From: Undaria pinnatifida
Lineage: Eukaryota > Sar > Phaeophyceae > Laminariales > Alariaceae
Direction of reading: 5' to 3'
DNA length: 64,000 nt
Assembly: GCA_012845835.1 (NCBI GenBank)
Contig: JABAKD010000002.1
Location: 15,016,129-15,080,128 of the forward strand
Below are positions 23,461-60,363 of this stretch, in pieces. Both the position numbers and the translations under genes were made by a program. The stretch's first letter is position 1. Every line of letters begins with the position of its first letter. Under the pieces are notes generated by a model, which made no database searches, was not told the origin of the DNA, and saw only the letters and a list, made by a program, of their open reading frames with translations.

Positions 23461-23544
23461 TTTTCGTCTTTCTCTGGGGTATTTTTTTCCCCTTTGTTCC
23501 CTCCTTGCGTGTCCAGGTTTTTGGCTCGTGTTCGGATTATCTTA

Positions 23545-23985
23545 TTTTGGTTTTACTTTACTTTATTTTATTTCATTTTATTATGTTTCTTTTCCGAGCT
23601 TTGGCTCTCCTTTCCGGTTGGGTTGTTTCTTCGATTTCCCCTTCATTTTGTTTGTTTCATTTTTTGTTTTATTTTTATCTTTGTTTTTATTTGTTGTCTT
23701 ATTTTGTTTTTGTTATTTGTTTTTGTTTTTGTTTTTGTTTATTTCGTATTTCTCTCTTCCAATGTATTTCTGTTGCTGACGTATGTATGTTGTGCCTGTC
23801 GTACCCAGTACTAGGGCATGACATTGCGTTGTCGAATGCATTACGATGCATTATCTCTGTGTCGTGGCTTGTGACCACAGAGCTGATCTTTCTAGGGTGA
23901 AGAATCAGTACGGACACTGGGTGTGCTGGATGTCGACGAGTAGAAGAACGGTTTAATGTGAAGAACACACACACACACACACTAT
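23545..23985. repeat. 430-bp dispersed repeat, copy 1, with (AC)n tail
   Basis: T-rich head (TTTTATTATGTTTCTTTTCC), a TTTTG-rich middle, a unique core (CTGTTGCTGACGTATGTATG ... GTGCTGGATGTCGACGAGTA), then AATGTGAAGAAC and (AC)n. Nearly identical to copies 2 and 3. Confidence 0.92.
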
Positions 23986-25404: not shown

Positions 25405-25725
25405 ATGGCCCCGTCTCGACCGACGAGCAGCCGCCGCCCATGGGCGCGCCTCGGCACCCTCGGGGGGCTTGCCCTGACTATGCTGAGACCACCTGCGAAC
25501 AATGCACTGGAGATATTGGACAGCGTAGTTGATCGGGATGGGGATGTGCTTGTCGTGGAGGATATTTTGGAGGGGTTTGGAAAGGTACCCGTTTCTGTGG
25601 ACTTTTCAGCGGTATCGGATCACATGTTCATCGGCTTCAAGGCAGGGATTGTGCGAATCTACCCTGATGGAGGAGCCACGGAGGCTGCAGCTGTGTTCGA
25701 TGACTGCGTGGACATAGAGGAAGAT
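25405..25725 (+). CDS. Fusion gene exon 1: signal sequence and propeller start
   Basis: Residues 1-107. [19 protein letters not shown] leads into a short hydrophobic core, then [36 protein letters not shown] and [11 protein letters not shown], the first propeller blade. Donor GTGAGA, phase 0. The ATG has a GACG-ATG-GCC context. The following intron is 12.6 kb. Confidence 0.8.
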
Positions 25726-28109: not shown

Positions 28110-28141
<32 letters not shown>

Positions 28142-34100: not shown

Positions 34101-34563
34101 CTCGCACAACAACTATGCACATTCCAAGGAACAAGCAAGTCAGAGCGTGACAGCATTAACATCCAACAGGCTCGGTTCCTCGTCATCTGCTATTGCGTCT
34201 TAGGCCATCTCTTGGTTCGGGGTAACACGCTTTCTGGATCCGAAAATGAACGTTTTCGGACCGAAAACCGGTTTGCAAATCTTACAGACCCGAAACTGTT
34301 GATGTTTCAGGCTTGCATTTTCGGATATCGTTTAAGGGTCGACCCCCACCCAAAAATGTGTGCCCAGTTTCGGGTAAAATCGTGTCTGAAAATGGCGTCT
34401 GGATTTGATTTTCCACACGTCAAAGGGGGCAACACGCGTGTATCAAGCCGAAAACCGAAAACAGCAGTAGTAACAGCAGTAGTAACACTATTAGTACAAA
34501 ACACGAGACACGCATCAGACGTTGTATCTTCTGAGCAAGCAACACGTATCATCGGCATGCTCG

Positions 34564-34596
<33 letters not shown>

Positions 34597-36705: not shown

Positions 36706-36767
<62 letters not shown>

Positions 36768-39700
36768 TAGCTACTTGCTCCACTCCGAACGCTAATGGGT
36801 AGTCTTCGGTGGATCCCTACCATACGTGACCGTATGTATCACCCGGGACGTCGTTTGTAACACCCCTGGAGTATGCCACCCGGGCGATAAAAAGTTTTAA
36901 ATCCTAGAACGAGAACCCGACTTACCACCCGGGTACGTTGTATGCCACACCCTCTGCTGTTTCATGCCTCAGAATCGGCGTGACACCCCCAAGACTGCTC
37001 CGCCGAAAAGTAGGACGGGCAGGCAACAACCTTCGTACCGGTCGTTTGTGATCAATATCAGTCTTGCGCGTCGGCCCAGACCAACACGACCCTGTCCCTA
37101 ACCTTAACGCTACCCCCAACCCTTTGGAGGGGTCGGGGTCGGCAGGGGCAGTCGGGCGGCTCCGCAGTATGCCTGGAGTGTTGCAGCAAAAGTCATTTCA
37201 ACCTCTTTGGTCACACCCCTTTTGGCACACGTCCTAGAGGGTACCGCCTCGCTCGGTCATGGTGATGTCTTTTGTCATATTCATGACGACAGCCCAATTT
37301 ATCGCCGGGGTAGGTTGTATGTTTGACACACCCCTGGAGTATTACCTCACCTACCCGGGTGATGAGCGTTTTTGAGACCGAAATGTTATCGCAGGGATTG
37401 TGGTATACAACGTCGTATGCGGTGGGTGGCTCTAAACGCTGGGAGTTTGGAGGTTGTGCACTTTTTTTGCGAACATGGCGACCACTAAAAAGACGATTGT
37501 GATCTTATCAGCATCTATTAATAGCAAGAGAATCACCATGCTATGATACACGCGTGTCGCACAACTCCTTGCACTGCAGTTATTAATATCAATAGGACAC
37601 ATACATACATACCCTAGGACATGCCCGAACCAGGCTACGGCGGTACCATAAGGGGGCCATAAGGGGGGTTTCCTTTTGGGGGGGGGGGGTTATGTTGCGG
37701 TGGCTTGGGGACTATCGCGCGAGTGACCCCCCTGTTCCTTTCGCGGTGCTGAGGTTTCTTTCTTTTTTTCTTTCTTTCTTTCGTGAGTACGTGATGGATT
37801 GGCAAGCGATGCTGCGGAAACACGACGCGTATGAAAATACGTGCAAGTGTGGTGAGCTAAAGCTTTATTTTTCCCCATCCGCCGGAGGATAAAAAAAAAA
37901 AAGCTGCGGAAAACAAATTGGCTTTACCTTTTTTCAGTTGGGTAGAGAGCCACCACTTCCAGTGCCTCATAAACACACTTCAGTACCCCCAGTACAGTAC
38001 ATGGTAGTAATAGTGAACATGTCTGTACCCCCGCTACCGTAGCTTTGGTCACCGTTACTATTACTACACTGTCACACTATTACACTATTACACTATTACA
38101 CTTATTGCAGCGGGCCGGTCAAATGGCAATATCTCTTGAATACCCTCTGGAATACCTCTGTACTACCGCTGTAATGATCTCATATGCATACTGCTGTAGT
38201 ACGAAGTATTGCTACTACTGTACTAAAAAAACCAAAGTGCTGTTGCTGCCCTGCTGTGCGCTTTACCACTGCCGTATTCCCAATTGTGTGCCTAAATGCA
38301 ATGCCAACAGGTGTACGACAACAACGACCTGGGCCTCCTGAACTTCCGATTACACCCTGACTGGCCGACTACTCCCTATGGCTTCATGCTCTACACTCAT
38401 GACGTGGGGTAAGAATCTCGCATGGACCAGACATACTTTTATATTCATTCCAAGTACTTCGTACATCGTAGGTACTACAAGGGCTCCGTTCCGCGGGTGG
38501 CTGACGCTGCCCGCTACGCTCGCGCAAGGAAGAATATAACACAACGTGAAGGGGACAGGAAGAAGAGGCCATTGATTTGGTGCATCTAGCGATTGGATAA
38601 TGCCAAGAGCTACTTGTGCAGAGCTGATTGCCCTGTGGTGTATTGCGTACTTGTTGGCGATGTCACGTTCAATTCGGCGGTAAAGGTGTACTTTACGGAG
38701 ACAAAAAAAATACTTCGAAGTATGAAGAGGGCCGCGAGAGGACAATCAATGAAGAATGCAAACAGACGAGTGCACACGTACGTACCGATATCTGGTACCT
38801 GGTGCTTGGCAGATACCTGGTACTGTGTGTACGAATGAAAGCGAAGCTCAGCACGGCGCTGCGCTGCGCTACTGAGCTATAGCTGTGCTGCGCTGCTGAG
38901 CTATAGCTGGGCTGAGCTGAGCTGAGCTGGGAGTGCATTGTTCGTGATTCAATAATGGTGTAGCACGAACAAACCTGGTGTAGTAGTACCAGTACCTAGT
39001 ACTGTATGATACTTGAAATGATACCTGACATGTGCCAAAGAGCAAGTACAGCACTCAGCACGGCACAGCGCCGCACAGTACCGCACCGCACGGCGCTGCG
39101 CTGCTGAGCTAGCGCTGCGCTGCGCCACTGAGCTACCTGAGCTGATGAGCCAAGCTGAGCCCAGCTGGAACCTGGTATGTTACTTCGTACTCAACTTCCA
39201 CAAACAAAAAAAATAATTAAAATACCGAGTGAAGAAAATATGAAAAAAAAAATCAAAATTGAGTTAGCAGAAACCAATTTTAATGGGAATCGTTGGAAAA
39301 TCAATCAACTGAAAACAAAAGTTGAAGGAAGAGATCATAGAACCGCTGGACCGTTCCGCAAGTTATGGAAGGAGGCGGCGTTGAAGTGGAAGGTTTCGAG
39401 AGGCCAGGGGTGTACCAACCGAGCCCGCCCAGGAAAACGACAGCGATAAGTCAACGATAATTAAGTCTATCATGCTTTGAGGGCTGAGTTCGCAATGATG
39501 TGATTAGTGTGTTGTTCTGTCCTCGCCATACATGTTCGACGGCAACATGCTACTACTGCTGCAACTCTAAGAGCTTCGAGTGGGTGTTGTTTTATTGTAT
39601 TTTGAGCGGACGAAGCAGGTGCAAAATATATCGTGTACTGCTGTAGTCTACGAACAACGTGTGATATGATATGATAGGTGCAAAATACAATTCGTTCCGC

Positions 39701-48700: not shown

Positions 48701-49581
48701 GGCGTTATGTGAAGGCACTGCAGCAGTAGTGGTCCTCTCTAGCGCCGGTGGAGTACAGCGGCCTGCCCGATATAGTGCCGGTGAGATGTCTTGGCCCAAC
48801 TGGAATCTGCTTTACCAGCACCATTGTCCGTACAATACCCAACAGTGCCAACATCCGTTATGCTGCCGGTTGTTGTTGGTCTGTTGTTGGTCTCACATTA
48901 ACTCGCATAACCAAGCCCGTGGTCACAGGACGGGCTCCAATCACTCTGAAGTGGAAGAATACCCCAGGGAAAACACAGAGCACACCAAAAGCGGTACACG
49001 CAAAAATTATAGCTGTAATTTGTTGCTTGGTATGTACATATAGTACATACCGGCACTATAAAGGGGCCCGTACTGTCTATGTCTCTATCAGCACAGTACT
49101 TCAATACTTTAACTTGCAAGGCTTCGGTGTTTCGGTGTTACGCTCCTTGTTGCTTCAGGACTGCGTGTTCTACTTTGACATGAACGATAAGACAGGCAAG
49201 GTCGACTGGACCACGCCGCACGTCCTCTTCGATTCCCGATCTATCGTCGACTTCAACGCCGACCCAAAGACAGGTACGCCAACAATACCGGCACTATACC
49301 AGCACTATTGGGTATCGGTAACATTGTTAGTATTGTAATATTAATAGCATATAGACCTATACCAGGTAGCGGGTTCCAGTTGTGCCAAGCGATTTCACCG
49401 GCACTATACGATGAGCATTTGTTGATATGTAGAACATTTGTTGAACATGTAATACATTTGTTAATAGTATTCAATCGGCACCATAGGGAGACCCGGTACA
49501 TATCATATCATATCATATCATATCATAAAAGGAGGTGTCGCCATGGTCGTTTGCAACGACAGTAACATGAACATCAACGAC

Positions 49582-49653
<72 letters not shown>

Positions 49654-49660
49654 CAGTAGC

Positions 49661-49691
<31 letters not shown>

Positions 49692-52600
49692 TAGTAGTAG
49701 TAGTAGCAGTAGTAGGTTAATTAGCACCAGGGTAACAATAGCAACGGCAGTATACAAATAACGTCAACAGCAAGGCCAACAGCAACGTCTATCGTCGACT
49801 TCAACGCCGATCCAAGGACAGATATCATATATGATATATGGTACGGCGTTATGATAGGTCGGGGGCATCGCCATTGTCGTTTGATTTGACGCATTGCCAG
49901 TCGCCTTGGAATGTGTATGTGTTGGCCGTACGCCCGTCACCGCTGCTCGACTTGTTTCAGCGACGGGCTGTCAGTAGACATCTTTCGTGTTGAGGCTGTT
50001 ATTCGTTGCTGCTTGTTCACCGCGTTCACCGCCGTGCCTGGCGTGCCAGTATGATTTGTGTTGTGTTGTTTTTGCTTGGCCAGGTGTGGTGCATAGACAC
50101 AGAAGCATAATTTTTTTTGTTGAGTATTGAATATTTGATGTTCCTATATATTTATTTGTATTTGTAGTGCAATACTACTACTGTAATCTCAAGTAATGAG
50201 GGTGATGTTCGATGCTCAATGTTCGCCGTGCCTGCTGCTGTGCCCGCTGTTTGTTCTTGCGTTGGTCTTGCTGTTTGCACTACCCAGGTGTCTTGTACGC
50301 TGTGGACGCGAAGTTCTCAATCCTGATGAGAATCTCTGCCGTCGGAGGGCCTATGACTGCGGGGGGACCAGCCATCGTGCTTGAGGCAGATGTGGTAAAT
50401 GGACCGGTGAGCTTTCCAATGGTTTATTCATTTTTCATTTTTCCAACCGCCCATCGTGCCAGAGGCAGATGTCATCGATGGGCCGGTGAGCTTTGGAAAC
50501 ATATCCATCCGTCGTCCATCACGCCATACCCATACTCTTAGGTACTACTGTAGTTTACAGTTTAATAGCTATTAATATCACAACGTCACAAATATTGAAG
50601 TATGTTATTAATATTGAAGTATGTTAAGTGTCGATCCGATTGTGGCAGTGAAACATCACAGTAGTCAAGAACGTTCTTTGACCATGCCATCAACCATCAA
50701 TTATAAAAACTTCTCGACTTGTTTTTTGTGTCATGCTTTCTTCGTAAACTATTTTGAAATATGAAAAAATACACTTTTACAGTAAGTACCAGGTGTAAAT
50801 TTGTTACCAGGTACCAGGTATGTATTAACTTTCGCGCCAATGTTCAATACTCGTACACACAATGTGTGTACGTTGTTGTGTGCATTACAAGGGCACACGG
50901 CAGCTCGTTGCCAGCCTTACCCTTATCCCCATTTGCACCTGTACTTGTACCGTTACCATGCAGCAGCACTAACGTTTTACTAACTTCACGTAAACTTGCG
51001 CCGCGCGAAATGGACGATAATGGACGCTCTCGCTGTCTCGCCCCCCCCCACTACTGTACTGTACTGCTGTCTACGAGTGCTACCGACGCTTAAGGCCGTT
51101 TTGCGCCATCATTTTTAAGGTTGTTTTTCTGTTTCGTTTGGTGCAGTTGACTTCGGAAGTTACCCGCACGCATCCTTAACGGACTACCGCTATGGCCGTT
51201 ATTCTTTCTTTTTTTTTCGTTTTTTAACATTCATGTTGTTGTTTGTCGTGTTTTTCATGCAGCTACCTTTGGAGGTTACCCTTGACGCGTCGAACTCTAC
51301 CGACGTGGAAGGAATCGTCAGTCTAAGCTGGGACTGCGAAGGAGATGGCGTGTTCGAGGCCACCAGTGACTGGAGCGTTGCTACGGCGAGAACGCACGTA
51401 TGCACCTACGCCGAGGATGGCGCCTTCGAAGCCACGGTCCAGGCCACCAACTCGCTGGTACGTAGGATTGAAAGTTGCATCTGTTGTTTTCATGTGTTGT
51501 TTTCATGTGTTGTTTTCGTTACCAGGTATCGACGGTATTAATAGTAAGTACCGTTTTGCTGTCGCACCAGTTCTAAACCCTATATAGAGCTATGGACGGA
51601 GCTGTAGAGCTATATATAGAACAATAGACAGGACTGTGGGTTGGTTGAATGTGTTGAGTAGAAATGGACGACTTACTAGTGGTTGCCAACCAGGTGCGGT
51701 GATTTGCGAAGTGCTGCGCTTTTGTACCTGACTGGCGCGTTTTTGGCCTCCCTACCCCCCCCCCCCCCCTCTCGCCTCCCCTCCTCGCCTCCGTCCGCCT
51801 TTATTCTCAGAACGAAACCTCGTCGGAATTTATTGAAATCATCGCTGGAGATGCTGTCGGTCTGACGGATGTACCGACGACTGCTCCCGCGGCCACGCCG
51901 ACAGTGGCGCCCGCCCCAACCACGTCACCGGTTGCGGCACCCATTGGAGGCGCGCTGGAGTCGCCGCCGGAACTGGAGTGGGAGTTGGATGAAGCCTCAG
52001 GCGTTTATATGGGGGAGGTGGAGGTGGGGGTGGTGACTCTGGATAACTTCTGGGGAGTGACTACTACTAGGGGCTTTAATGGACAGGTGTGTGGGTTGGT
52101 TGGGGGTTGGTAGTGTAGGTGTTACCGGAGTAAGAGTTTGCTGTAGTGTCAGGCGTGTTTGTTGGGGGGTGGAGGTGGGGGTGGTGACGCTGGGTTATTT
52201 CTGCGGAGTTGCTACTACTTGGGGCTTTAATGAGTAGGTGTGTGGTTTAATAGGTTGGTTTGATTTGAGTTGGTGATGGTGATGGTGTGAGTTGAAGTTG
52301 GATGAAGCATCAGGCGTGTTTGTGGGGGAGTTGGAGGCGGGGTGGTGACGCCGAATATATTTGGCGGTGTTGCGTTGTTGGTGGTGGTGGTGTTGGTTTG
52401 TGGTCGGCGATGGTCGTGTTGGTACAGGTGGTAATGGTTGTGATGGTGGAGTCGGTGTTGTAGTGTTGGTGTTGTTACTGTTGCTGTTGTTTGTTGACTC
52501 GCCGTGTTGTCCTGACGATTGTTCGCTGGTTGTTGTTGATGCCGATACCCGATACGGTATATTTAATGTGTACGAGAGGGAAGGGAGGAGGGGGGGGAGG

Positions 52601-55600
52601 GGAGAGAGCGGTGACAAGTGAAGTTGTGTTTTTCATTTGGTGGTTTTGGTCGTTCTTTTGTGTTTTTCGGCAAAGTTGCACTCGGCGCTATCGATCGATT
52701 GTAGGCCGACCGTTGTGCTACCGCTCTTGTGTTTGTTTGAACTTTGGATGCCGCTTTTCCACCGTCTTTGCGGAGCGAATGCTTTTCCTCCGTCTTTGCG
52801 GAGGGATGTTCTCCTTGTTTCTCCTTTTTTTCATTGGTGTCGCTTTTGTGTTTGTTTTTTATTTTCGCCCAAACCTCAGATCCCGGGGCCCACGATTCGA
52901 ATGGAGGCGTGTTTGACGTACCAGCTGACTGTGACGAACGCGCTCGAAGGGCCTAACCCCGGGGGGAACTGGAACACGATGAAGGACCCCAACACCACGA
53001 ACATTCACACCCATGGACTGCACCTCTCGGGCGAGAGCCCTGCTGACGACGTTTTGTACGTGAAGATCACTCCGGGAGAGGCCCACACATGTGAGAACGC
53101 ACAACGAAACCGGCAAGAGAACGTCTGCTGTGAACGAAGGACGAACACCCGTCGAGCATGTTTTCTCAGGGGCGTGTACAACCATATCGTACATACGCCT
53201 GGTATATATCCCGTGTATACATCGAATATGTATGATACAATCAACAGAAATAAATGGTCGTGTAGCCATTATTAGACTATCGGCGTTTTTTACGCGAGAA
53301 TCACTCACTCCGGGAGAGGCCCACACTTACATGTGAAAACGAAGGACGATAACCGCCCGAGGCTGATTTTGCATCGATAGGGTATGTACAGGTAGTGCTG
53401 CACAGCCATCTCATGGCTGCTGTGTGATGAGCTCAAAGCGACGCTGATCTTGATTGCCTTGATGGCCTTTTATTTCAGAAACAGCCAACAGCGAAGACAA
53501 CCCTACCCTACAATACCTCTAGCGTTACTTTTACTACCATCGCAACTATACCCTACCTATAACATTTCTAAGAATAGTGTCATTAACCGTTTCAATTACC
53601 CCAATCCGTTTCCATCTTGTTTCAGACCAGTACACAATCCCGTGTGATCACGTGGGGGGGGGACGTTTTGGTACCGCCCCCCCCTACCACCTCCCTACCA
53701 CCTCCCTATCACCTCCCTATCACCACCTTGCCTCTAACATTAGTCTGCCTCAAACGTTAGCCGGTAGTTGGTACTCAATGTTACCGTGACATTAACATTG
53801 CCCCGATCATTTGCCGTTGGGCGTGTTATGTTTTGTGCAGATGAGTACACGATCCCGTGTGACCACGCCGGAGGAACCTTCTGGTACCACCCCCACCACC
53901 ACGGTTCCACCTCTCTGCAGATGGGCGGAGGTGCCATGGGAGCTCTGATCATCGAGGACAGGCCGGACGTGCATGCTATTCCCGACCAGATAGCCAATAT
54001 GCCGGAGATCGTGCTTACCATTCAGGTGACCTTTAATAGTAATACCATTCAGGTCATCTTCAACAACAGTACTACTTTTAGTAGCAGTTGTACGAGTAGA
54101 AATAATAGTATAGTAGTGCCATGAGGCCCCTCCCCTCCCTGATCATGGAGGACAGGCCCGACGTGCGCGTCATCCCCGACCAGATAGCCAACATGCCGGA
54201 CATCGTGGCCACCATTTTAGATAGCAGTTTCAGCTGGCAGCCAATCACAAGTCGCGGCTCGTCTGGGAGTCTTGAGTTGTTGTTGCTGTTATTGGTGTCT
54301 TGGGAATCTTGAGTAGCAGTGGTTTCTTTTAATATCGTCTGGCGGATGAGTAATTATACTAAATGCTGTACCTGGTACTAGTACTATTAATAGTATTATA
54401 AGTGATAAACGCCTTTACAAGTGCAAATCCGATCAAACGCCTTTCGGGACAAATCCCTTGGAACTTGCATGGAGAGGGCTTGGGCTTCAAAGAGGTTAAG
54501 CTCTCGCAACCCTTCCCTATGTGTCGTGTGTGTCGTGTGTGTGTCGTGTGGCAATTTTACTCGGTTGCATGATACAACAGTGCTATGAAACAGTGCTAAC
54601 ACGTGTGTCGCGGGTCGCTATTGATATTTGACATCCTGTGCGATGGTAGTGGAAGGCGTTGTATGAAGTTATTTTATTTTATTTTATTTTATTTATTTTT
54701 TATAACTAATTTTCAAGGACGTCAGCCGTGAGTTTGACGAATTTCAGGTTAATACTCATCTTTACAAGCTGCGTTGTTGGTACTCGTAATATACTATATG
54801 AGTGAGTTTTGATTGGGAGGTAGGTGTCTTATTTTTTGTCCACTATAATGGTAAGTATTGGTATTTATACTTTGGGTGGGGAATCTTGAGCTAGGTAAAA
54901 CATCACATGATGTCATCTATTTTATAAATTTATTACTGTAGTTTCCCCTATACTGCTTTATCATATGTATGGTAGGCGGTTTATTTTGTTTTTCTCCCCC
55001 CGGGGGCTTTATTATCGGAAAGAGTACGAATACAGAATGTTATTACTCATCTATATGTTGCTCTTAATACAGCATTCAAGAATTAAATTCATCTATTTTT
55101 GTGTGTCGTTGTGTTAGTCATGTTGGCGCAATAAAAACTTTGTGCCGGGAAACACGTCGCCAGGCAACGCGTTCGTTGGCTTCGCGTTACAGATGCCCCT
55201 TGTGTATAGCTGCACGCGCGTGAGTGTTGTGTATGTCTTTGTTTTTGTTCGCGCTTCTCGTTCACACCGAGTAATCGGACCGAGTTATCACACCGAGTCA
55301 TCGCACCGAGTCATCACACCGAGTAATCATACAGAGTAATCGTGAAGCAACATGAGCCACACATTCTACACAGGCACGTTAATGCTGCGCCTAAGGTTTT
55401 CTAACTGGAAAACGTATTGCTGTATCGCGTAACGCCCTTCTCTTTTCATTTGTCTTTCTTGCCTTTCCCATTTCCTGCCCGCCCCATTGTTCCCCCCTGC
55501 CCCCCCCCTCCCTCCCAATCACTGCGTGAGCTAGACAACCAAGTTATCTTTTTTTTTGCTGTTACGAGGATGGTTATCGGAGTAAGATCATATTGTGCGG

Positions 55601-58600
55601 GGTGGAAAACCCTAACTCCGCACAAGGGGAATGATCGCATCACGCAGTGTGAATATGGTAAGGCACCCACGAGGCAGTTACATAGTAATACCCATTGCTG
55701 TCTCTGGAGTGGCCACACCAGAAAACATAGTATAACCCATTGGCCCTGCCATCCGTAAGCAAGAAAGTAGGCACAACGTGTCGGAGTCCGTCTTACAAGC
55801 GGTTCTTGGAAGGATGCAGTTCACCCTTCATGCGACTCGCCGAACACCTCACGGCGCTTCGCGCTCGGTGCAAGCAATGTCTGCCTTGTTGGTAAAAACC
55901 TGACGTGCTCCGTCCCGGCATGGTAGGGATGCGAGGGTCTATGGTCATACGACTACGGCCATGCACAAACTGAGCACACGCACACACCCGCCCCCCCTGC
56001 CCGTACCGTCTGCGTGATCCAGGAAATGAACCCAGAGCTATCTTTGGCCGACAGGGATGCCTGCGGCGACGAGCTGTACAACACCACTGCCACCTCAATG
56101 TACGTGTCGCGCATTAAACCCTACATTACATGGAAATGTTTTCGATGTTGGCTTTTTTTGCGTCTCAAGAGCTTTCCCTTTTTTGTCCTACGCAACTTCT
56201 TGCATCGCTATGCTTGGCGATGTCATGAACCCTTTATTACTATTCTTCGTAATTAGTATAGACTATTGTATAGACTACAGGTCCCTGGTGCCTGGCGAAG
56301 GCACTTGGACAGAGTTCACTCGCTTCTTACAGTGACCGCATGTGATTTCTGAAGATACTGAACCGATTCCAATTATTGCAACTAATAACTTGTATATCTT
56401 GGTGCTGCTTCGATTATTTTTGCAGCCACTACCTAGTCAACGGCGAAGTGGTGCCGACGATCGAGATGACCACCGGCGTCTGGATGCGCTTCCGAATGGC
56501 TTTCGCTGGCCACGGAGCCAATCACGCGATCTCTCTACTAGACCCGGATGGCGACTGCGAGATGGGCGTGTTGGCGAAGGACGGGGTGTACCTGGGGGAG
56601 GTGCCTAGGATGGAGCCCACGCTCTTTTTCACGCCCGCCTCCAGGTGACAACTACAGTAACCACAGCAGTGTTGCAAGTGGCAATATTTTTTCAAGTATT
56701 TACTACTTTGGTAACACCAATAGTCGTTATTCTTCGTAGCACACATATTTGAGATATCGAGTCCCTGGGCACCATTACGTATTTCTTACCCGTACACGGT
56801 CCCTACGCATGGTCGCTTCGCATGGTCGCTACGCATGGTCGCTAGGCAAACATGCTGCAGTGACAAGTCGGTACATTTTAGTAGCTATCATCTTGCTGTT
56901 GTCAAATTAACTCACCGCCGTAGTCTTGTCCGCATGTATTGCCAAACCACTTTCAATAGGCCCACTCAGAATTCGGAAGCAACGAGTCAACAGGCAATGG
57001 CGACCTTCGCCGGCGTGGCGTTAGCATGGCGTGTATTCCGGTCTTGCTGTCTTTTCATTCGTTCTGGAGTCGCACCTCATTGTGGGGTGTTCTCTCGCCC
57101 GATTTATTCACCCTTCACCTCAGCAGTTGATTCTCACAGCGCGCACTAGCACCCCCTCCCTGCCACCGCTCCACTCCTGTCCGTCCCCGTACCCCACCGT
57201 ACCCCACCGTACCCCACCCCCCAGTGTTGCGATGGTGCTGCTTCATTTGTGCTTGGCTGTTGCGATGCCTGTGCTTGTGCTTATGCTTACGATGGTGGTG
57301 TGCATACGCTGCTACGCTTGTGTTAGTGATGGTCGTGGCAATTTTTAAGTTTCAAAGTACCTGGTACCAGTACAATATGTTGGTAGAGAAGCCTTTCGCC
57401 CATTGACAGACAGCAATATTGCCTTGGCTGAAACCAAACTGCTACCAGGTACGAAATAGATAGGTGTTACCTGGTAGTGTGGAACGCTCGGTCCTACACC
57501 CTTGACCTTCGCAGCGTGCGTTCTCCATTCAAGGACATGTCTCCTGACCTGAATTTTTTTTTTTTTTTTTTATCCTCCTGGGGATCCGGGTAAAAAAAGC
57601 TTAAGCTCCATACACTTTCGTTCGTGTACCAGTTTTCGTCCATCTGCAGAACGCAGACTTTGTGTCAACCTCGCCCCTCCGGTTTAGTCAACACTATGAA
57701 CTTGCCGGCCTTCTTTGACTGATCCCTATACTGACCCTGTCGTTTTTGGTGCTGGTGTGCTTGTTTGATGCTGCAGGGTTGACGCTGCGGTACGCTGCTC
57801 TACTGCTGGGGACTTCGACGTCCGAATAGAGTCGACGCTTACCCTGGGACAGACCACACCGTTGGCCATACTGACCGTGGAAGCGGGCACGGCCGACGCG
57901 GACGATGACCTTGAGACATGGGCGCCGTGCAGGTGAGCCAATACTCCAATTTAACGAAGCAATTGCTTCGAGCCGTTGCGCCATGACTTGTTTATACCAG
58001 CTAGTTATTATTGCACCCTTTCTGTAATCTGCTTTATACCAGTACTACCTGTTACTTACCACTTACAGTATACATTTTTCTTACCGGGTATCTTGTTTCA
58101 TAACGGTGCTGTCTACTATTAATAGGTACTTTTTTCTTTCGTTTTGCTGTTTCTTGTTTTTGGTTTTTGGTTTCCTGATGGTATTTTTTGTTTCTATTTT
58201 TTCTTCTTGTTGTCGAAGGTAGTTTGTGCTAACGTCCTAACCCATCTCTCCGACTCTTTCCCCGCCATTTAGACATACCTGGTACTGGAGATTCCTACTC
58301 CGATCCTACCTCTAACTCCGATCCCAGATGTGACCTTCTTCTCCGAACCCAGTTCTTATCCGCGCCGGTCTCTGTCTCTTCACACTTTGAACCGTACTAC
58401 CTCCAACACCTCAACCACACAAACACTTACCGAGTTTGTGGCCGATCCAAACTCCGACTCGATATATCCGATTTAGACCTCGTTTCCAACTTCAATCCAA
58501 ACTCGGATTGCCACTCGACCCCCCGCTCCAAATCCATTTCCGACCGACGCTGGTTTCTCCCCCCGCCCCCCCTCTCTTTTTACACGTCAGACCGTACTAC

Positions 58601-60363
58601 CTCCAAGACCTGACAGAGGAAGACTTTAATCAGACGGAAACTCTGGGGCTGCTGGTGAGGGAGACGATCGGGGGCGACTATTTCACGGGGCCTGAAAACT
58701 TCTTGATGAACATGACCGAGGGCGGGATGCAGCAGTGGAACTTGATGGGATCTAGCCAGCACCCGTTCCACTTGCATGTCAACCACATGCAGTTTGCTAG
58801 TGTAGATGGGCCTGCCCTCGTGCCTGGCTGGAACCACGTCGGAGATTGGGTCGACACTGTCTCAAGTGAGTCTTAACGTTTAGTTGGTACCTGTACATTT
58901 ACATGGTAGGCAGATCATTATATCGATCTAGGTAGATGAGACAGGCGACGATCGAGATCCTTTATCTGGCGTTGGGAGATGTTGCGCAATAATACCTACA
59001 TTTTCGTGTCCAGCTGGAACCATGTGGGTGATTGGATGGACACATCGACACTGTTTCATCTAAGGCGTGTGCTATTGCGCGCGAACCGGGCGGTTAATTC
59101 GCACGCCCGCCTAAAACATAGAGACCGCTCTAAAACGTACATTGTGTTGTTCATACATATATGTATATTATTTAACATTTTCATGAAATAATTTCCCCAC
59201 GTGTAACCCTATTTCCGTCCACCATAAACCCCGTTCTGCGCGTGTTTATTTTTTTTGTCGTTCGACAGCAAGCTTGGCGGTTGTACGGTTCCGCGCAGAC
59301 CGATACGGCGGTCATCTGGTGATGCACTGCCACGTTAACTCTCACAGCGACACCGGGATCATGGCGGTCGGCAACATTGAGGGGGGACAGGCGGCCAACG
59401 AGGATCCCATCGCCCTCGCCGCCGGCACTTGCGGGTGAGCACAGCCGCCGCGTTGAGTGGGATTGGTGACTCTCATATTCTGTTTTGGCATTTCGTTTAA
59501 TTGATGGTGGGATTGGTGGAACTGGCATTTTTTCTGTTGGCTTTTGGAGTTCCGTTTCAGTTCATTTCGGTTCATTTCGGCGACAACTAGGATCATGGTG
59601 GTGTTTACATTGGACAGCAGGCTAACATTGGACAGCAGGCTAACGAGGACTCCATTGCCCTTGCCGCGGGCACTTGCGGTGACCGGCTGCACCTGCCGCC
59701 GATACCTAGTGTTCGTACGGCTGTATTGGGATTGGTTTTTTGCACTCGCATCACTCGCATGCTGTAGTTCACATTAGTTTTTGGCGGTTTGGTTCGTTTA
59801 ATGTTCGGAGCAAGGAGACCACCTTGTTTTTGTGGCGATGGTGTTTCGGCATCACCCCCTCCCCTGCCGCTCCGTCTGGAAAGGGATGCGTGGTCAATGG
59901 TCAAATGGCGTAAGTCACTTAACAAATGAGTACGTCGTCGTCGTCGTCGTCCCCCTGCCACCAACTTTTAAAATCTTGCCTCCCCCTCTTCCCCCCCGGC
60001 CTCATCCCCACCCAATCCCCCCCCGCCCCCCTCTCCCCCATCCGTCCCTCCCGCCACAGCACTGCCGGGGTGGCCGGTTTCGGTTACAACTTCCAGGCCA
60101 CCGCGGCCACGCCCTCCCCCACCAGCATAGAGGACGCTGAAAGGTCTGGTATAGAGGTGGATGGCGGTGGCAGTTCAGACGGGGACAGCTCGTGGTGGGT
60201 GGCGGCAGCAGCTGGTGCTGGCGTAGGCTTGGGTATAGTGTTCCTCGGCGCTCTCCTGTTCTCGTGCTTGGGCAAGAACAAGCGCGGCGGGCCAAAGGCG
60301 ACCGTGGGTAGCGGTGGTGGAGGGGAGGGACTTGCTAGTGAGACGAAGGCGGAGCCTGCGTGA
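25405..60363 (+). CDS. Membrane-anchored PQQ sugar dehydrogenase-PKD-multicopper oxidase fusion
   Basis: Nineteen exons, all junctions in phase, 3555 nt, 1184 residues. Order: N-terminal signal sequence (Arg-rich then [12 protein letters not shown]); glucose/sorbosone-dehydrogenase propeller (about 55-490) with the catalytic-type HHGGGG (His191) and GFRNP (Arg264, Asn265) that bind PQQ and substrate in soluble glucose dehydrogenases; PKD domain (498-562, [11 protein letters not shown]...WDCEGDG); Thr/Pro/Ala linker; multicopper oxidase (about 625-1085) with HTHGLH (697-702), WYHPHHHG (740-746), HPFHLH (994-999) and [13 protein letters not shown] (1048-1060); membrane helix 1129-1155; basic KNKRGG stop-transfer and a short tail. 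Expected to face the outside or a vesicle lumen. By family knowledge the propeller would oxidise a sugar and the copper centres reduce O2 to water; coupling between them is inference. Exon 1 could be preceded by an unseen leader exon. Confidence 0.88.
26410..26735 (+). repeat. tRNA-derived SINE-like element, copy 2, A-rich tail
   Basis: CGCCCCGGTGGCGTATCAGG and GAGTTCGAGCCCCG, the same body as copy 1 (GAACCCTATGCGCGATAAAA), GTCCAGAAGCTGGAAAGTAA and an A-tail. Confidence 0.7.
26815..26905 (+). repeat. Dispersed repeat 'GTGGTCACAGGACRGGCTCC', copy 1
   Basis: TCGCATAATCAAGTCCGTGG through AGGAATACCCCAGGGAAACA. Other copies at 29095-29215 (inverted, inside transposon B) and 48885-48990. Confidence 0.8.
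27695..28140. repeat. 430-bp dispersed repeat, copy 2
   Basis: As copy 1, plus seven extra bases that create TACCTGGTA at 27721, and a longer (AC)n tail. Confidence 0.92.
28308..28748. repeat. 430-bp dispersed repeat, copy 3
   Basis: Near-identical to copies 1 and 2, with the same orientation and (AC)n tail. Confidence 0.92.
29095..29215 (-). repeat. Dispersed repeat, copy 2, inserted in transposon B
   Basis: Inverted copy of the repeat at 26815-26905. Confidence 0.8.
29475..29801 (+). CDS. Small Cys/His-rich zinc-finger-like protein of transposon B
   Basis: 108 residues. [43 protein letters not shown], then a Gly/Lys/Ser-rich tail, intact with stop. Roughly 60 percent identical by eye to the protein at 12778-13128; Cys/His spacing is nearly the same. 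No known fold is claimed. Confidence 0.65.
   Translation: MPCADGELLCHQEDRTPQAPHGHFCQGGCRGRLHGNCGSMFDDHETKRICSTCVAEAGKRKATPAEGAGAGPSKHPKKTKGGSEKGSGSRARPDNNAKLEIVKFVATL
30404..30645. repeat. ~230-bp repeat downstream of transposon B
   Basis: Second copy of the repeat at 14275-14512, in the same position relative to the zinc-finger element. Confidence 0.88.
32262..32580. repeat. ~46-bp array with splice-like units
   Basis: Seven or so units of GAGTGTGCATAACTGAGTTA then TCGTCTTTAACTCACCCCCC. Read on the minus strand, each unit has CACACTC(GA)G, a G-run and GTGAGTT. Two more units lie at 33315-33400 around the acceptor of the exon at 33097-33324. Confidence 0.88.
33097..33324 (-). CDS. Terminal exon of an unrecognised minus-strand gene
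   Basis: Seventy-five codons plus [63 protein letters not shown], then an acidic Glu/Ala/Ser/Thr tail. Acceptor CACACTCAG. Codon use is GC-rich and gene-like, unlike the surroundings. It lies inside the 12.6-kb first intron of the fusion gene on the opposite strand. The earlier exons were not found. Its acceptor sits in a unit of the ~46-bp array that recurs at 32265-32580. I do not recognise the family. Confidence 0.5.
   Translation of the reverse strand, partial: GGDYVETTLFLNGNQKHIPTEVSALSDEQAKDALPRRITNLTANVVALSSGEEEVAKDTDVDESATEATEAASST
34560..34596. repeat. CTG trinucleotide run
   Basis: About eleven CTG units. Confidence 0.9.
34625..34900 (+). pseudogene. Possible transposase N-terminal fragment
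   Basis: [20 protein letters not shown] in one frame and [24 protein letters not shown] in another; the style recalls PIF/Harbinger-type ORFs of stramenopiles. Frames are broken and no catalytic domain follows. Tentative. Confidence 0.25.
35440..35590. repeat. 75-bp direct duplication
   Basis: GCTAGCGGCGAGCGCACAAC ... GGCACGGAAACACTTCTGTG occurs twice in tandem. Confidence 0.9.
36300..36665. repeat. ~120-bp tandem repeat, three units
   Basis: Units of GTACCACTT...TACCCTTGGTGTTCTCTATT and CTCTCCGTCTC...CCGTTCGG. Confidence 0.88.
36704..36768. repeat. TAC trinucleotide run
   Basis: About twenty uninterrupted units in intron 1 of the fusion gene. Confidence 0.93.
37840..37895 (+). repeat. Short element ending CCGGAGGATAAAA
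   Basis: ACGTGCAAGTGTGGTGAGCT ... CATCCGCCGGAGGATAAAAA. Related copies at 2828-2870 and 42335-42410 (inverted), 41125-41190 and about 57560-57620. The A/T-rich tail suggests a small retroposon. Confidence 0.6.
38311..38408 (+). CDS. Fusion gene exon 2: 'D-GLL..HPD' blade
   Basis: Residues 108-139. [19 protein letters not shown] then [11 protein letters not shown], matching the 'ERGLLGIAFHPDF...YvYYT' signature of sorbosone dehydrogenases. Acceptor TGCCAACAG, donor GTAAGA, phase 2. Confidence 0.9.
39840..40030. repeat. GATGACCATCATCATGATGA-type array
   Basis: Interleaved ATGATGACC units with CACGATGTACCAAAGAGACG as a larger ~75-bp period, three times. Confidence 0.85.
42200..42300. repeat. 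TACCAGGTATATCA 14-bp array
   Basis: Six units, each holding the TACCAGGTA motif dispersed elsewhere in the window. Confidence 0.92.
42982..43066 (+). repeat. Exon echo of 43190-43409 (upstream)
   Basis: Copies the acceptor and 5' part (TTAGATACGAGGATGAC...GAGAAGGATCACCGACTGGT), now with indels. Confidence 0.85.
43190..43409 (+). CDS. Fusion gene exon 3: catalytic His blade
   Basis: Residues 140-213. Contains [20 protein letters not shown], the catalytic-base His motif of the PQQ dehydrogenase family. Acceptor TACGTTTAG, donor GTAAGG, phase 0. Truncated copies lie on both sides: 42982-43066 (5' part) and 43555-43665 (3' part). Confidence 0.92.
43555..43665 (+). repeat. Exon echo of 43190-43409 (downstream)
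   Basis: Copies the [12 protein letters not shown]...VGDMSK part and a mutated donor; frame broken by TAG. Confidence 0.8.
43684..43798. mobile_element. 115-bp TA-flanked inverted-repeat element
   Basis: CAGAAGTGGTCCCGCTATAG at the left and, inverted, CAGTAAAGCTCCCTCTACAG at the right; TA on both sides; three TAGTGCCGG-like motifs. Same family as 15261-15469. Confidence 0.6.
44155..44286 (+). CDS. Fusion gene exon 4: propeller
   Basis: Residues 214-257. [20 protein letters not shown] then LVRDEDFF, matching the 'Q....GKILRID' region. Acceptor CTCCCTCAG, donor GTAAGT. A decayed 3' copy lies at 44530-44635. Confidence 0.88.
44530..44635 (+). repeat. Exon echo of 44155-44286 (downstream)
   Basis: Reads [19 protein letters not shown], then a stop, with a GTGAGA after CTTTTTT. 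Confidence 0.85.
45793..45998 (+). CDS. Fusion gene exon 5: RNP blade
   Basis: Residues 258-325. [44 protein letters not shown]. This is the 'GxRNPFR...DVG...E.I...GWP..EG' core of the family. Acceptor TTTTGAACCAG, donor GTGAGA, phase 2. Confidence 0.92.
46264..46312 (+). repeat. Exon echo of 46539-46687 (upstream)
   Basis: GGCTGGTGGACGAGCAGAGC and GACGCATGCGACGCCGTC match the exon start, followed by a GTTGTTGGTGG array. Confidence 0.85.
46315..46445. repeat. GTTGTTGGTGGT array
   Basis: Follows an exon echo. A similar array lies at 52370-52500. Confidence 0.85.
46539..46687 (+). CDS. Fusion gene exon 6: propeller
   Basis: Residues 326-375. [20 protein letters not shown] to [11 protein letters not shown]. 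Acceptor TGCGTTACAG, donor GTAAGC, phase 1. A 5' copy lies upstream at 46264-46312. Confidence 0.85.
47120..47215 (+). repeat. SINE-like 3' fragment
   Basis: GGAAGACGCCTGTCACCATG to GAGCTGGAAAGTAATAATGA matches the 3' end of the elements at 10975 and 26410. Confidence 0.6.
47373..47503 (+). CDS. Fusion gene exon 7: propeller
   Basis: Residues 376-419. [20 protein letters not shown] then [20 protein letters not shown], the 'GGayYrG...P...G.yifgDy' blade. Acceptor GATGATTAG, donor GTCAGC (weak). A 3' copy lies at 48447-48480. Confidence 0.88.
47950..48180. repeat. Two head-to-head tRNA-like SINE heads
   Basis: Minus: CGCTGGTCTAGTGGTTAACC with AGTCAAGGGCTCAAATTTCG (48035-47960). Plus: GCCGGTGGTGTAGTGGTTGC with GAGCTCGAATCTCACG (48045 on). 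Both have A- and B-box-like phrases, but tRNA arms do not fold well enough to call tRNA genes. Confidence 0.55.
48447..48480 (+). repeat. Exon echo of 47373-47503 (downstream)
   Basis: CATCGGCGACTTCTCCTAGG copies CATCGGCGACTACTCCAAGG with a stop. Confidence 0.75.
48724..49074. mobile_element. Degenerate member of the TAGTGCCGG family
   Basis: Left CAGTAGTGGTCC...GCGCCGG and right (inverted) CAGTACGGGCCCC...AGTGCCGG. TA flanks are lost. It contains a SINE-like insert at 48885-48990. Further family scraps follow to 49500 (CGGCACTATA, TTTCACCGGCAC). Confidence 0.5.
48885..48990 (+). repeat. Dispersed repeat, copy 3, inserted in the 48724-49074 element
   Basis: ACTCGCATAACCAAGCCCGT ... AATACCCCAGGGAAAACACA. 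Confidence 0.8.
49159..49273 (+). CDS. Fusion gene exon 8: propeller
   Basis: Residues 420-457. [20 protein letters not shown] then [11 protein letters not shown]. Acceptor TTGCTTCAG, donor GTACGC, phase 1. A 3' copy at 49787-49823 has lost the donor. Confidence 0.85.
49586..49692. repeat. TAG trinucleotide run
   Basis: About 35 units with four CAG interruptions, in intron 8 of the fusion gene. Confidence 0.95.
49787..49823 (+). repeat. Exon echo of 49159-49273 (downstream)
   Basis: CTATCGTCGACTTCAACGCC then GATCCAAGGACAG; donor GTACG became ATATC. Confidence 0.85.
50288..50406 (+). CDS. Fusion gene exon 9: end of propeller
   Basis: Residues 458-497. [20 protein letters not shown] then [12 protein letters not shown], the 'G.LYyvD....i.rI' closing blade. 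Acceptor CTACCCAG, donor GTGAGC. A 3' copy at 50446-50497 keeps the donor. Confidence 0.85.
50446..50497 (+). repeat. Exon echo of 50288-50406 (downstream)
   Basis: GCCAGAGGCAGATGTCATCG then GGGCCGGTGAGCTTTGG, keeping the donor. Confidence 0.85.
51147..51190 (+). repeat. Exon echo of 51263-51457 (upstream)
   Basis: TGCAG then TTGACTTCGGAAGTTACCCG versus CTACCTTTGGAGGTTACCCT in the PKD exon. Confidence 0.7.
51263..51457 (+). CDS. Fusion gene exon 10: PKD domain
   Basis: Residues 498-562. [29 protein letters not shown], then [20 protein letters not shown]: a whole PKD fold with the Ser/Asp-rich turn, the WD-GDG core and the closing strand. One exon, phase 0-0. Acceptor TTTTCATGCAG, donor GTACGT. 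A 5' copy lies at 51147-51190. Confidence 0.9.
51811..52086 (+). CDS. Fusion gene exon 11: linker and oxidase entry
   Basis: Residues 563-654. A Thr/Pro/Ala linker ([19 protein letters not shown]), probably O-glycosylated, then [20 protein letters not shown] and [14 protein letters not shown]. Acceptor TTATTCTCAG, donor GTGTGT. Two 3' copies follow. Confidence 0.85.
52158..52365 (+). repeat. Two exon echoes of 51811-52086 (downstream)
   Basis: 52165-52240 copies [10 protein letters not shown]...GFN and the donor; 52290-52360 copies [14 protein letters not shown]. Both have broken frames. Confidence 0.85.
52880..53090 (+). CDS. Fusion gene exon 12: first copper motif
   Basis: Residues 655-724. 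[20 protein letters not shown], then [19 protein letters not shown] with the type-2/type-3 His pair, ending GEAHT in phase 1. Acceptor AAACCTCAG, donor GTGAGA. A copy of its 3' end lies at 53295-53395. Confidence 0.93.
53295..53395 (+). repeat. Exon echo of 52880-53090 (downstream)
   Basis: CACTCCGGGAGAGGCCCACA repeats the exon end; similarity continues ~70 bp into the intron (53091-53165). Confidence 0.85.
53620..53730 (+). repeat. Exon echo of 53841-54025 (upstream), expanded
   Basis: CAGTACACAATCCCGTGTGA copies the exon start; its CCCACCACCACGG part expanded into a CTACCACCTCC minisatellite. Confidence 0.85.
53841..54025 (+). CDS. Fusion gene exon 13: second copper motif
   Basis: Residues 725-786. 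[20 protein letters not shown], then [28 protein letters not shown] is the type-3 copper motif. Acceptor TTTTGTGCAG, donor GTGACC. Copies on both sides: 53620-53700 (5' part) and 54125-54225 (3' part). Confidence 0.93.
54125..54225 (+). repeat. Exon echo of 53841-54025 (downstream)
   Basis: Reads [20 protein letters not shown] then DIVATIL; high identity, but the donor CAG|GTGACC is gone. Confidence 0.88.
56023..56099 (+). CDS. Fusion gene exon 14
   Basis: Residues 787-811. [20 protein letters not shown] then TTATS. Phase 0 in, phase 2 out, joining to HYLVNGE as the second cupredoxin domain begins. Acceptor TGATCCAG, donor GTACGT. The least conserved exon, supported mainly by phase and context. 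Confidence 0.7.
56426..56644 (+). CDS. Fusion gene exon 15: second cupredoxin domain
   Basis: Residues 812-884. [40 protein letters not shown], ending FFTPAS, matching 'yLVNG...P...v..G...RlR..na'. Acceptor TTTTTGCAG, donor GTGACA, phase 2. Confidence 0.9.
57777..57932 (+). CDS. Fusion gene exon 16: second cupredoxin end
   Basis: Residues 885-936. [20 protein letters not shown], then [18 protein letters not shown] and WAPC, the 'g.RvDv.v' segment closing the second domain. Acceptor ATGCTGCAG, donor GTGAGC, phase 2. Confidence 0.88.
58375..58415 (+). repeat. Exon echo of 58591-58865 (upstream)
   Basis: ACCGTACTACCTCCAACACC copies the first codons after the acceptor. Confidence 0.75.
58591..58865 (+). 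CDS. Fusion gene exon 17: third copper motif
   Basis: Residues 937-1028. [20 protein letters not shown] ... [20 protein letters not shown] ... [19 protein letters not shown] provides type-1, -2 and -3 ligands. Acceptor ACACGTCAG, donor GTGAGT. Copies: 58375-58415 (5' part) and 59010-59066 (3' part). Confidence 0.93.
59010..59066 (+). repeat. Exon echo of 58591-58865 (downstream)
   Basis: [13 protein letters not shown] copies [13 protein letters not shown]. Confidence 0.88.
59269..59434 (+). CDS. Fusion gene exon 18: fourth copper motif
   Basis: Residues 1029-1083. [20 protein letters not shown] then [16 protein letters not shown]. HCHxxxH carries the type-1 Cys flanked by two type-3 His. 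The residue ten after the Cys, the axial type-1 position, is Ile. Acceptor TCGACAG, donor GTGAGC. A 3' copy lies at 59590-59690. Confidence 0.92.
59590..59690 (+). repeat. Exon echo of 59269-59434 (downstream)
   Basis: Copies [12 protein letters not shown]...LAAGTCG with an extra internal duplication (ACATTGGACAGCAGGCTA twice). Confidence 0.88.
60060..60363 (+). CDS. Fusion gene exon 19: stalk, membrane helix, tail, stop
   Basis: Residues 1084-1184. A Gly/Ser/Asp stalk, then [20 protein letters not shown] and LLFSCLG as a membrane helix, KNKRGG as a stop-transfer, a Gly-rich cytosolic tail and TGA. Acceptor CCGCCACAG after a long C-rich tract. Confidence 0.9.

What the first reader, a model, noticed from the sequence alone, without database searches (positions are those of the whole stretch)
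25405..60363. Sugar dehydrogenase fused to a multicopper oxidase on one membrane-anchored chain
The exon chain keeps frame through 19 exons and joins a PQQ-dehydrogenase propeller (His191, GFRNP), a PKD spacer, a Thr/Pro/Ala hinge, a complete multicopper oxidase and a C-terminal membrane helix. Each family is well known separately. I know of no described protein with this order. If PQQ and copper are both bound, one chain could take electrons from a sugar and pass them to O2 at the cell surface, a built-in oxidase. Roles in wall or mucilage carbohydrate oxidation, phenolic coupling or metal oxidation are possible.
Basis: partly seen in the sequence, partly recalled or inferred. Interest (0 to 1): 0.92.

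Follow-up and report, generated by a model that had tools for sequence, protein, structure and literature searches.

The report
Brown-alga sugar-dehydrogenase/copper-oxidase fusion gene
A seaweed gene appears to make one cell-surface protein that joins a sugar-dehydrogenase-like module to a complete copper oxidase, a natural pairing of two enzymes that normally come from separate genes; whether the sugar half still works is not known.

Summary
Profiles built only from prokaryotic proteins pick out five propeller/PKD exons and five copper-oxidase exons, collinear on one strand, and prefer the exon 9|10 and 11|12 junctions. Junction 10|11 is the weakest link.

All 11 copper ligands are present; the Type 1 axial residue is Ile, against Met in 15 of 15 prokaryotic rows. 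The propeller keeps His191 and Arg264-Asn265, invariant in 16 of 16 rows, but lacks the RxR pair of bacterial PQQ enzymes. PQQ use is plausible, not shown.

The genome also has a propeller-PKD-CBM6 gene and an oxidase gene without the other half. No fusion was seen at 42 bacterial propeller loci or among matches in 14, 148 and 246 prokaryotic genomes. No eukaryotic proteome was searchable.

Best reading: a membrane-anchored matrix oxidoreductase passing electrons from a sugar to O2 (0.38). Close rival: the propeller only targets a laccase to polysaccharide (0.35).

The parts
25405..25725 (+). exon 1: start codon, putative signal peptide, first propeller blade (aa 1-107)
   Evidence: donor top 2.2%
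38311..38408 (+). exon 2: propeller, [15 protein letters not shown] motif (aa 108-139)
   Evidence: bacterial tblastn E 1.7e-5; E 3.5e-6; weak acceptor; dropped by the finder at its strictest cost
43190..43409 (+). exon 3: propeller, His191 in [10 protein letters not shown] (aa 140-213)
   Evidence: (E 1.1e-6)
44155..44286 (+). exon 4: propeller, [14 protein letters not shown] (aa 214-257); least certain exon
   Evidence: no profile hit
45793..45998 (+). exon 5: propeller, GFRNPFR with Arg264-Asn265 (aa 258-325)
   Evidence: (E 9.4e-14)
46539..46687 (+). exon 6: propeller (aa 326-375)
47373..47503 (+). exon 7: propeller, [12 protein letters not shown] (aa 376-419)
   Evidence: E 2.5e-7
49159..49273 (+). 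exon 8: propeller (aa 420-457)
50288..50406 (+). exon 9: last propeller strand and first PKD strand (aa 458-497)
51263..51457 (+). exon 10: PKD domain body (aa 498-562)
   Evidence: E 2.2e-4; best of 49 acceptors after exon 9, 38.7 bits
51811..52086 (+). exon 11: end of PKD (by alignment), Thr/Pro/Ala hinge, first part of the oxidase (aa 563-654)
   Evidence: its end is the best of 152 donors before exon 12; junction 10|11 weak; no profile hit alone
52880..53090 (+). exon 12: oxidase, copper motif 1 HTHG, H697 and H699 (aa 655-724)
   Evidence: E 7.6e-14
53841..54025 (+). exon 13: oxidase, copper motif 2 WYHPHHHG, H741 and H743 (aa 725-786)
   Evidence: E 9.3e-20
56023..56099 (+). exon 14: oxidase, between copper motifs 2 and 3 (aa 787-811)
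56426..56644 (+). exon 15: oxidase, [13 protein letters not shown] (aa 812-884)
   Evidence: E 3.4e-7
57777..57932 (+). exon 16: oxidase (aa 885-936)
58591..58865 (+). exon 17: oxidase, copper motif 3 HPFHLH, H994, H997, H999 (aa 937-1028)
   Evidence: E 8e-9
59269..59434 (+). exon 18: oxidase, copper motif 4 [14 protein letters not shown]1048, C1049, H1050, H1054, axial Ile1059 (aa 1029-1083)
   Evidence: E 1.1e-7
60060..60363 (+). exon 19: stalk, transmembrane helix (about aa 1128-1157), short basic tail, stop (aa 1084-1184)

Best explanation
One gene encodes a secreted, type I membrane-anchored protein in the extracellular matrix of a brown alga. Its N-terminal six-bladed GSDH/PQQ-type propeller plus PKD domain binds and probably oxidises a sugar end of a matrix carbohydrate. 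A flexible Thr/Pro/Ala hinge lets the C-terminal laccase-type multicopper oxidase approach it, take the electrons at Type 1 copper and reduce O2 to water at the trinuclear centre, making a self-contained sugar:O2 oxidoreductase. Shown here by sequence: the single in-frame chain (no transcript seen), the domain identities, all copper ligands, and the core propeller catalytic residues. Inferred: PQQ binding, sugar oxidation, electron passage between the halves, membrane topology. The architecture alone I hold at about 0.9; the coupled mechanism at 0.38.
For: Architecture. By profile (propeller plus PKD) the subfamily is nearer most solved PQQ aldose/glucose dehydrogenases (2ism E 4e-37, sGDH 1.5e-28, 2g8s 2e-28, 3a9g 4e-27) than Hedgehog-interacting protein (8e-18). 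His191, Arg264 and Asn265 are invariant in 16 of 16 rows; HHIP has lost the Arg-Asn pair (GLHDP), and the fungal AA12 enzyme binds PQQ with His363 (its paper equates it with sGDH His144) and Arg430-Asn431 (PMC6881789, passages). The oxidase has 11 of 11 copper ligands although its branch is the longest in the tree (1.81 changes per column). Precedent: AA12 joins a PQQ propeller to a cytochrome b acceptor domain in a eukaryote (PMC6881789 passages; PMC4332668 abstract start). Two related prokaryotic MCO genes, in Salipiger and Skermanella, lie in one gene run with a GMC sugar dehydrogenase and its small subunit. A sister propeller-PKD gene in the same genome carries CBM6.
Against: The RxR pair aligned to sGDH Arg406/Arg408, kept in 2ism and 2g8s, is absent from all 16 rows as I read the alignments; sGDH Gln76 aligns to Asp and Lys377 to Ser with a Lys next to it. 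One PQQ-enzyme structure, 3das, scores no better than HHIP (1.3e-18; that it is a PQQ enzyme is recalled). PMC6881789 (passages) says no PQQ biosynthesis has been reported in eukaryotes. The dehydrogenase neighbours of the MCOs are of another class (GMC) and were seen in only 2 of 9 annotated genera, and by tblastn in only those 2 of 27 loci, most of them short. The Type 1 axial Ile suggests a high-potential copper suited to phenols, which a sugar donor would not need. No transcript, model or assay.
Confidence: 0.38

Rival explanations
1. Targeted laccase. Only the oxidase is catalytic; the propeller and PKD are a carbohydrate-binding or scaffold module that holds a high-potential laccase in the matrix, where it couples phenolics or oxidises metal or halide.
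For: RxR, Gln76 and Lys377 of sGDH not kept; axial Ile at Type 1 copper against Met in 15 of 15 prokaryotic rows and in the separate C57 oxidase of the same genome; sister propellers carry CBM6 and WSC modules.
Against: His191 and Arg264-Asn265 are kept through a subfamily only 22-33% identical to the query; a pure binding module would not need them.
Confidence: 0.35
2. Two independent enzymes on one chain: sugar oxidation and phenol or metal oxidation share a location but no electrons pass between them.
For: Both active-site cores kept; hinge of about 30 residues rich in Pro, Thr and Ala.
Against: No direct evidence; in AA12-AA8, the nearest eukaryotic analogue, the dehydrogenase passes electrons to the attached heme (PMC6881789 passages).
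Confidence: 0.12
3. Two adjacent genes, or alternative promoters: a propeller(-PKD) gene ending near exon 9 or 10 and a PKD-oxidase or oxidase gene starting in intron 9 or 10.
For: Junction 10|11 is weak by profile (rank 3 of 34); an ATG at 51233 just before exon 10 gives a short hydrophobic start [10 protein letters not shown]; the gene finder splits the region into several genes when gene costs are 3 or less; both halves exist apart in the genome.
Against: The first PKD strand lies in exon 9: exon 9 joined to exon 10 scores 38.7 bits, best of 49 acceptors (next, 12 nt away, 21.3; exon 9 alone 3.5). The end of exon 11 is the best of 152 donors for exon 12. Introns 9 and 10 are 856 and 353 bp. 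The 51233 start is the pyrimidine tract of a strong acceptor (leave-one-out top 1.4%). Of 83 phase-0 first-exon candidates, none that starts inside intron 10 reaches hydrophobicity 2.0, but this is a weak test, since the real N-terminus itself reaches only 1.48.
Confidence: 0.1
4. Ferroxidase of a reductive iron-uptake system with an accessory propeller.
For: Membrane anchoring; MCOs are ferroxidase candidates in diatoms (PMC4460010, passages).
Against: Fet3p acidic residues not tested here; best solved matches are Thermus laccase, then CueO-type oxidases.
Confidence: 0.05

Closest known systems
Prokaryotic GSDH-PKD proteins (e.g. Nonomuraea gerenzanensis L002, Plantactinospora L010)
   Same: Propeller and following PKD align end to end with the query, 22-33% identity
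   Different: No oxidase found in 42 of 42 loci (in six the open frame runs to the locus edge); L002 carries further C-terminal repeats that I read by eye as LamG-like
AA8-AA12 pyranose dehydrogenase of Coprinopsis cinerea
   Same: Eukaryotic six-bladed PQQ propeller with an electron acceptor domain on one chain (PMC6881789 passages; PMC4332668 abstract start); its carbohydrate-binding module is recalled
   Different: Acceptor is heme b, not a multicopper oxidase; no entry named pyranose dehydrogenase among the 32 matches of my profile
Laccase/CueO-type multicopper oxidases
   Same: Copper motifs and layout; best solved hits 9cpm and 2xu9 (E 3e-31 and 4e-31)
   Different: Axial Ile; fused behind a propeller-PKD; membrane tail
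Hedgehog-interacting protein and HIPL proteins
   Same: GSDH fold
   Different: HHIP has HD in place of Arg-Asn; the C52 gene of this genome, whose best solved match is HHIP, is nearer that type
Gene runs of MCO with GMC sugar dehydrogenase (Salipiger L006, Skermanella L008)
   Same: Sugar dehydrogenase near a related MCO
   Different: Separate genes, GMC-type dehydrogenase; in Salipiger other genes lie between

Membership tests
PQQ-dependent sugar dehydrogenase (GSDH fold, PF07995) | GSDH profile match over cut-off | tested here: met
   41.3 bits, cut-off 25; exon by exon in the genome search the family gave no match at E 0.001
PQQ-dependent sugar dehydrogenase (GSDH fold, PF07995) | catalytic His (sGDH His144) and Arg-Asn pair (sGDH Arg228-Asn229, numbering recalled) | tested here: met
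   His191, Arg264, Asn265; invariant in 16 of 16 rows
PQQ-dependent sugar dehydrogenase (GSDH fold, PF07995) | PQQ-binding RxR (sGDH Arg406/Arg408), Lys377, Gln76 | tested here: not met
   RxR absent in all 16 rows, while sGDH, 2ism and 2g8s keep it; Lys377 and Gln76 not kept. AA12 also lacks Lys377 and Gln76 but keeps Arg621, conserved in sGDH and Asd (PMC6881789 passages)
PQQ-dependent sugar dehydrogenase (GSDH fold, PF07995) | binds PQQ and Ca, oxidises sugar | not testable with these tools
   no assay; structure job not returned
Multicopper oxidase, laccase type | four copper motifs, 10 His and 1 Cys | tested here: met
   HTHG 697, HPH 741, HPFHLH 994, HCHxxxH 1048
Multicopper oxidase, laccase type | Cu-oxidase profiles over cut-off | tested here: met
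   59.7 and 35.7 bits
Multicopper oxidase, laccase type | oxidase activity on phenols, metals or halides | not testable with these tools
   no assay
AA12 pyranose dehydrogenase | sequence match to CcPDH | tested here: inconclusive
   no entry so named among the 32 matches at E up to 0.1; I did not check that CcPDH is in the library
Hedgehog-interacting protein | loss of the Arg-Asn pair | tested here: not met
   GFRNP in the query, GLHDP in HHIP
Fet3-type ferroxidase | E185, D283, D409 of Fet3p | not tested
   none

The most novel reading that the evidence does not exclude
A natural single-chain PQQ-copper sugar oxidase: a eukaryotic quinoprotein dehydrogenase with its own multicopper terminal oxidase, moving electrons from matrix sugars to O2 to give water, not H2O2, at the cell surface, with PQQ taken from associated bacteria.
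Probability: 0.25. Interest if true: 0.85.

Novelty: new variant of a known kind. Interest (0 to 1): 0.6.

Why it matters
If the two halves are coupled, it is a self-contained four-electron sugar oxidase that needs no peroxide, of interest for matrix chemistry in brown algae and for enzyme electrodes. Even if not coupled, it puts a laccase-like oxidase, perhaps of high potential, on a carbohydrate-binding, membrane-tethered chain, which makes the enzymology of phenolic-polysaccharide coupling in brown algae testable. It also adds one more candidate eukaryotic PQQ protein; the proven ones I saw in print are fungal (PMC6881789, passages), with a trypanosome claim from another propeller type (PMC13384848, abstract and outline).

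Tried and rejected
Two-gene model: tested by gene finder and by junction scoring; not favoured, but junction 10|11 stays weak and the forced-cut comparison was inconclusive.

Prokaryotic fusion: 704 plasmid records matched the chain, none over 80% of it at one place. 0 of 42 propeller loci hold an MCO by tblastn with five MCO queries; in six of the 42 (L013, L022, L025, L034, L036, L040) the open frame runs to the edge of the locus, so a fusion there could be missed. I searched 14 genomes, those of 14 of the 42 loci; 13 matched and no contig carries both halves among the listed matches. 8 of 148 and 15 of 246 further genomes have an oxidase match at the limits used. Frames under about 1000 aa cannot hold both halves; I read the two longer ones (1155 and 1284 aa) and one of 933 aa: each aligns to the query only from about residue 569 on, at its C-terminal end, with no significant propeller match (best E 0.30). 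Only genomes with matches are informative.

First genome-contig scan with the whole chain and one viral-contig scan with the oxidase found nothing. The GSDH family searched exon by exon in the own genome gave no match at E 0.001; Cu-oxidase_3 gave 4 weak ones, the window's exon 13 and C57 among them. Exon 11 alone matches neither profile, so its bridging role rests on alignment and junction scores.

Whole-protein Pfam scan of the C56 model showed only GSDH; PKD and CBM_6 appeared when segments were scanned.

Literature: (open PMC library only). No listing named a GSDH-MCO fusion; I saw titles and abstract starts, and passages of PMC6881789, PMC13384848, PMC7058681, PMC2824669 and PMC4460010. 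This is a limited search.

Structure: job on the bacterial family (alignment A3) accepted, not returned; so no fold search was made.

Full report
WHAT IS THERE. The window lies at C26:15016129-15080128 of a 511,146,479-base genome in 68 contigs. The published kelp Undaria pinnatifida assembly is 511,280,173 bases with GC 50.14% (PMC7058681, passages), so this may be that species or a version of that assembly; I did not test it, and 'brown alga' itself is my reading of gene style and genome size. A gene finder of my own, trained on obvious exon pieces and allowed to call several genes, called one gene from 25405 to 60363 at every intron cost tried. At lenient settings it adds many short exons; at the strictest it still adds three (29553-29797, 43560-43628, 50465-50485) and drops exon 2. 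With low gene costs it splits the region into several genes. Exon 2 is nevertheless a homologous block: a bacterial propeller finds it by tblastn at E 1.7e-5 and the profile at 3.5e-6.

MODEL-INDEPENDENT TEST. From 15 prokaryotic GSDH-PKD rows and 15 prokaryotic MCO rows I built profiles without the query and searched 1709 ORFs of both strands. The five best hits of each fall on exons 2, 3, 5, 7, 10 and on exons 12, 13, 15, 17, 18; the next GSDH hit has E 0.99. With the same profiles, among 49 in-phase acceptors after exon 9 the real exon 10 scores best (38.7 bits; next, 12 nt away, 21.3; then 5.6), and among 152 in-phase donors before exon 12 the real exon 11 end scores best (59.0; next 52.9; exon 12 alone 48.6). 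These two junctions lie inside conserved motifs: G..PL.V of the PKD start (exon 9|10) and NG..PGPT of the oxidase start (exon 11|12). Junction 10|11 is weaker: a PKD profile of 36 bacterial rows gains only 1.3 bits and ranks it 3 of 34. It rests on splice signals (donor and acceptor in the top 3.8% and 3.9% leave-one-out), phase and the lack of a convincing alternative start (a weak test). A two-gene split would have to fall there or use a start in the pyrimidine tract of intron 9.

THE PROPELLER. It aligns end to end, PKD included, with prokaryotic GSDH-PKD proteins, 22-33% identity. By profile the group is nearest to solved PQQ aldose and glucose dehydrogenases (2ism, sGDH, 2g8s, 3a9g, 7cdy) and further from HHIP, though 3das scores like HHIP. 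His191 and Arg264-Asn265 are invariant in 16 of 16 rows; HHIP has lost the Arg-Asn pair. The fungal AA12 quinoprotein binds PQQ with His363, Arg430 and Asn431, and keeps one further Arg (Arg621) that is conserved in sGDH and Asd; sGDH Lys377 is absent from AA12 and Gln76 is not conserved there (PMC6881789, passages). The present subfamily lacks both Arg of the RxR motif at the aligned place in all 16 rows, by my reading of the alignments; the query has an Arg one residue away whose role I cannot judge. So PQQ is plausible and unproven. Numbers and roles of sGDH Arg228, Asn229 and Arg406, and HHIP being non-enzymatic, are recalled.

THE OXIDASE. All 11 copper ligands are present. The Type 1 axial position (Cys + 10, recalled from CueO) is Ile1059 here, Met in 15 of 15 prokaryotic rows and Met in the C57 oxidase gene of the same genome (HSDTGMM). 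Non-coordinating residues there go with high potential in fungal laccases (recalled). In a tree of 17 rows the fusion oxidase groups with the C57 oxidase (95/93) on a long branch of 1.81. The C57 row was pieced together from tblastn segments, and the tree tool warns that the place of a long row is unsure. Keeping every copper ligand on such a branch argues for function.

THE SAME GENOME. The chain search gave 24 matches: the window itself, weak propeller matches on C56 and C52, and one weak match on C29 (E 2.6); it did not find the C57 oxidase, which came from the Cu-oxidase_3 family search. The C56 gene model is propeller, Ser/Thr-rich linker, PKD (1e-9) and CBM6 (6e-12), with no oxidase seen. 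C52 is a propeller whose best solved match is HHIP, with WSC (6e-12). C57 is an oxidase with no propeller found by tblastn in the 40 kb fetched. The fusion thus combines two parts that the genome also holds separately. These models come from the same gene finder and have no transcript support; the C57 model in particular contains low-complexity exons that look wrong.

ELSEWHERE. 0 of 42 bacterial propeller loci have an oxidase (tblastn E 1e-3, loci of 7.4-13.6 kb; in six the frame runs to the edge). Of the genomes behind these loci I searched 14; several hold both halves, on different contigs wherever both were listed. No fusion appeared among the 8 of 148 and 15 of 246 genomes with an oxidase match; the long frames were read and show no propeller match. 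Among annotated plasmid neighbourhoods of related oxidases, 2 of 9 genera (Salipiger, Skermanella) have a GMC sugar dehydrogenase with its small subunit in the same gene run (the others 38, 40, 74, 75, 77, 78, 79; one search is a second Sinorhizobium). Flanks were 2.5 kb and 6 kb in the others. Niveispirillum is not annotated. tblastn of these dehydrogenases over 27 MCO loci, 16 of them under 4.5 kb, hit only the same two. This is a lead for dehydrogenase-oxidase coupling, not proof. No eukaryotic sequence collection was available, so I cannot say whether the architecture is already annotated in other algae.

HOW IT MOST LIKELY WORKS. See Best explanation. Signal peptide ([27 protein letters not shown], moderate hydrophobicity) and topology are by inspection and hydropathy. 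The membrane helix is followed by KNKR. The hinge of about 30 residues is rich in Pro, Thr and Ala. The functional readings are close: coupled sugar:O2 oxidase 0.38, targeted laccase 0.35.

VERDICT. A well-supported gene model with an unusual order of two known enzyme families: a new variant of a known kind (dehydrogenase joined to its own redox acceptor), with the propeller's cofactor as the open question.

Noticed in passing
introns of the gene, e.g. 42988-43052, 43592-43663, 44537-44632, 46275-46315, 49788-49821, 52124-52232, 52289-52357, 53281-53326, 53629-53707, 54139-54216, 59004-59043, 59630-59679: Introns hold 12 diverged partial copies (75-94% identical) of 9 neighbouring exons; 0 hits with block-shuffled exons in 20 runs. 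The C56 gene model shows the same for 16 of 32 predicted exons, so local duplication around exons may be genome-wide; some copies could act as alternative exons.
   Followed up: partly
23541-23982, 27693-28130, 28304-28747: Three copies of a repeat of about 440 bp, 97-98% identical, same orientation; two lie in intron 1.
   Followed up: no
29409-29797 and 12718-13076: Cys/His-rich open frame in intron 1 ([32 protein letters not shown]...), with a 77% identical copy upstream of the gene; perhaps part of a mobile element.
   Followed up: no
18518-18826 and 19591-20016: Overlapping tandem-like repeats, 76-86% identical.
   Followed up: no
L006 and L008 (plasmids of Salipiger and Skermanella): Multicopper oxidase gene in one run with GMC dehydrogenase and small-subunit genes, in Salipiger also a c-type cytochrome: a possible sugar dehydrogenase to oxidase chain.
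   Followed up: partly
L009 and L111 (Sinorhizobium medicae plasmids): Multicopper oxidase gene two genes upstream of a tyrosinase-family gene.
   Followed up: no
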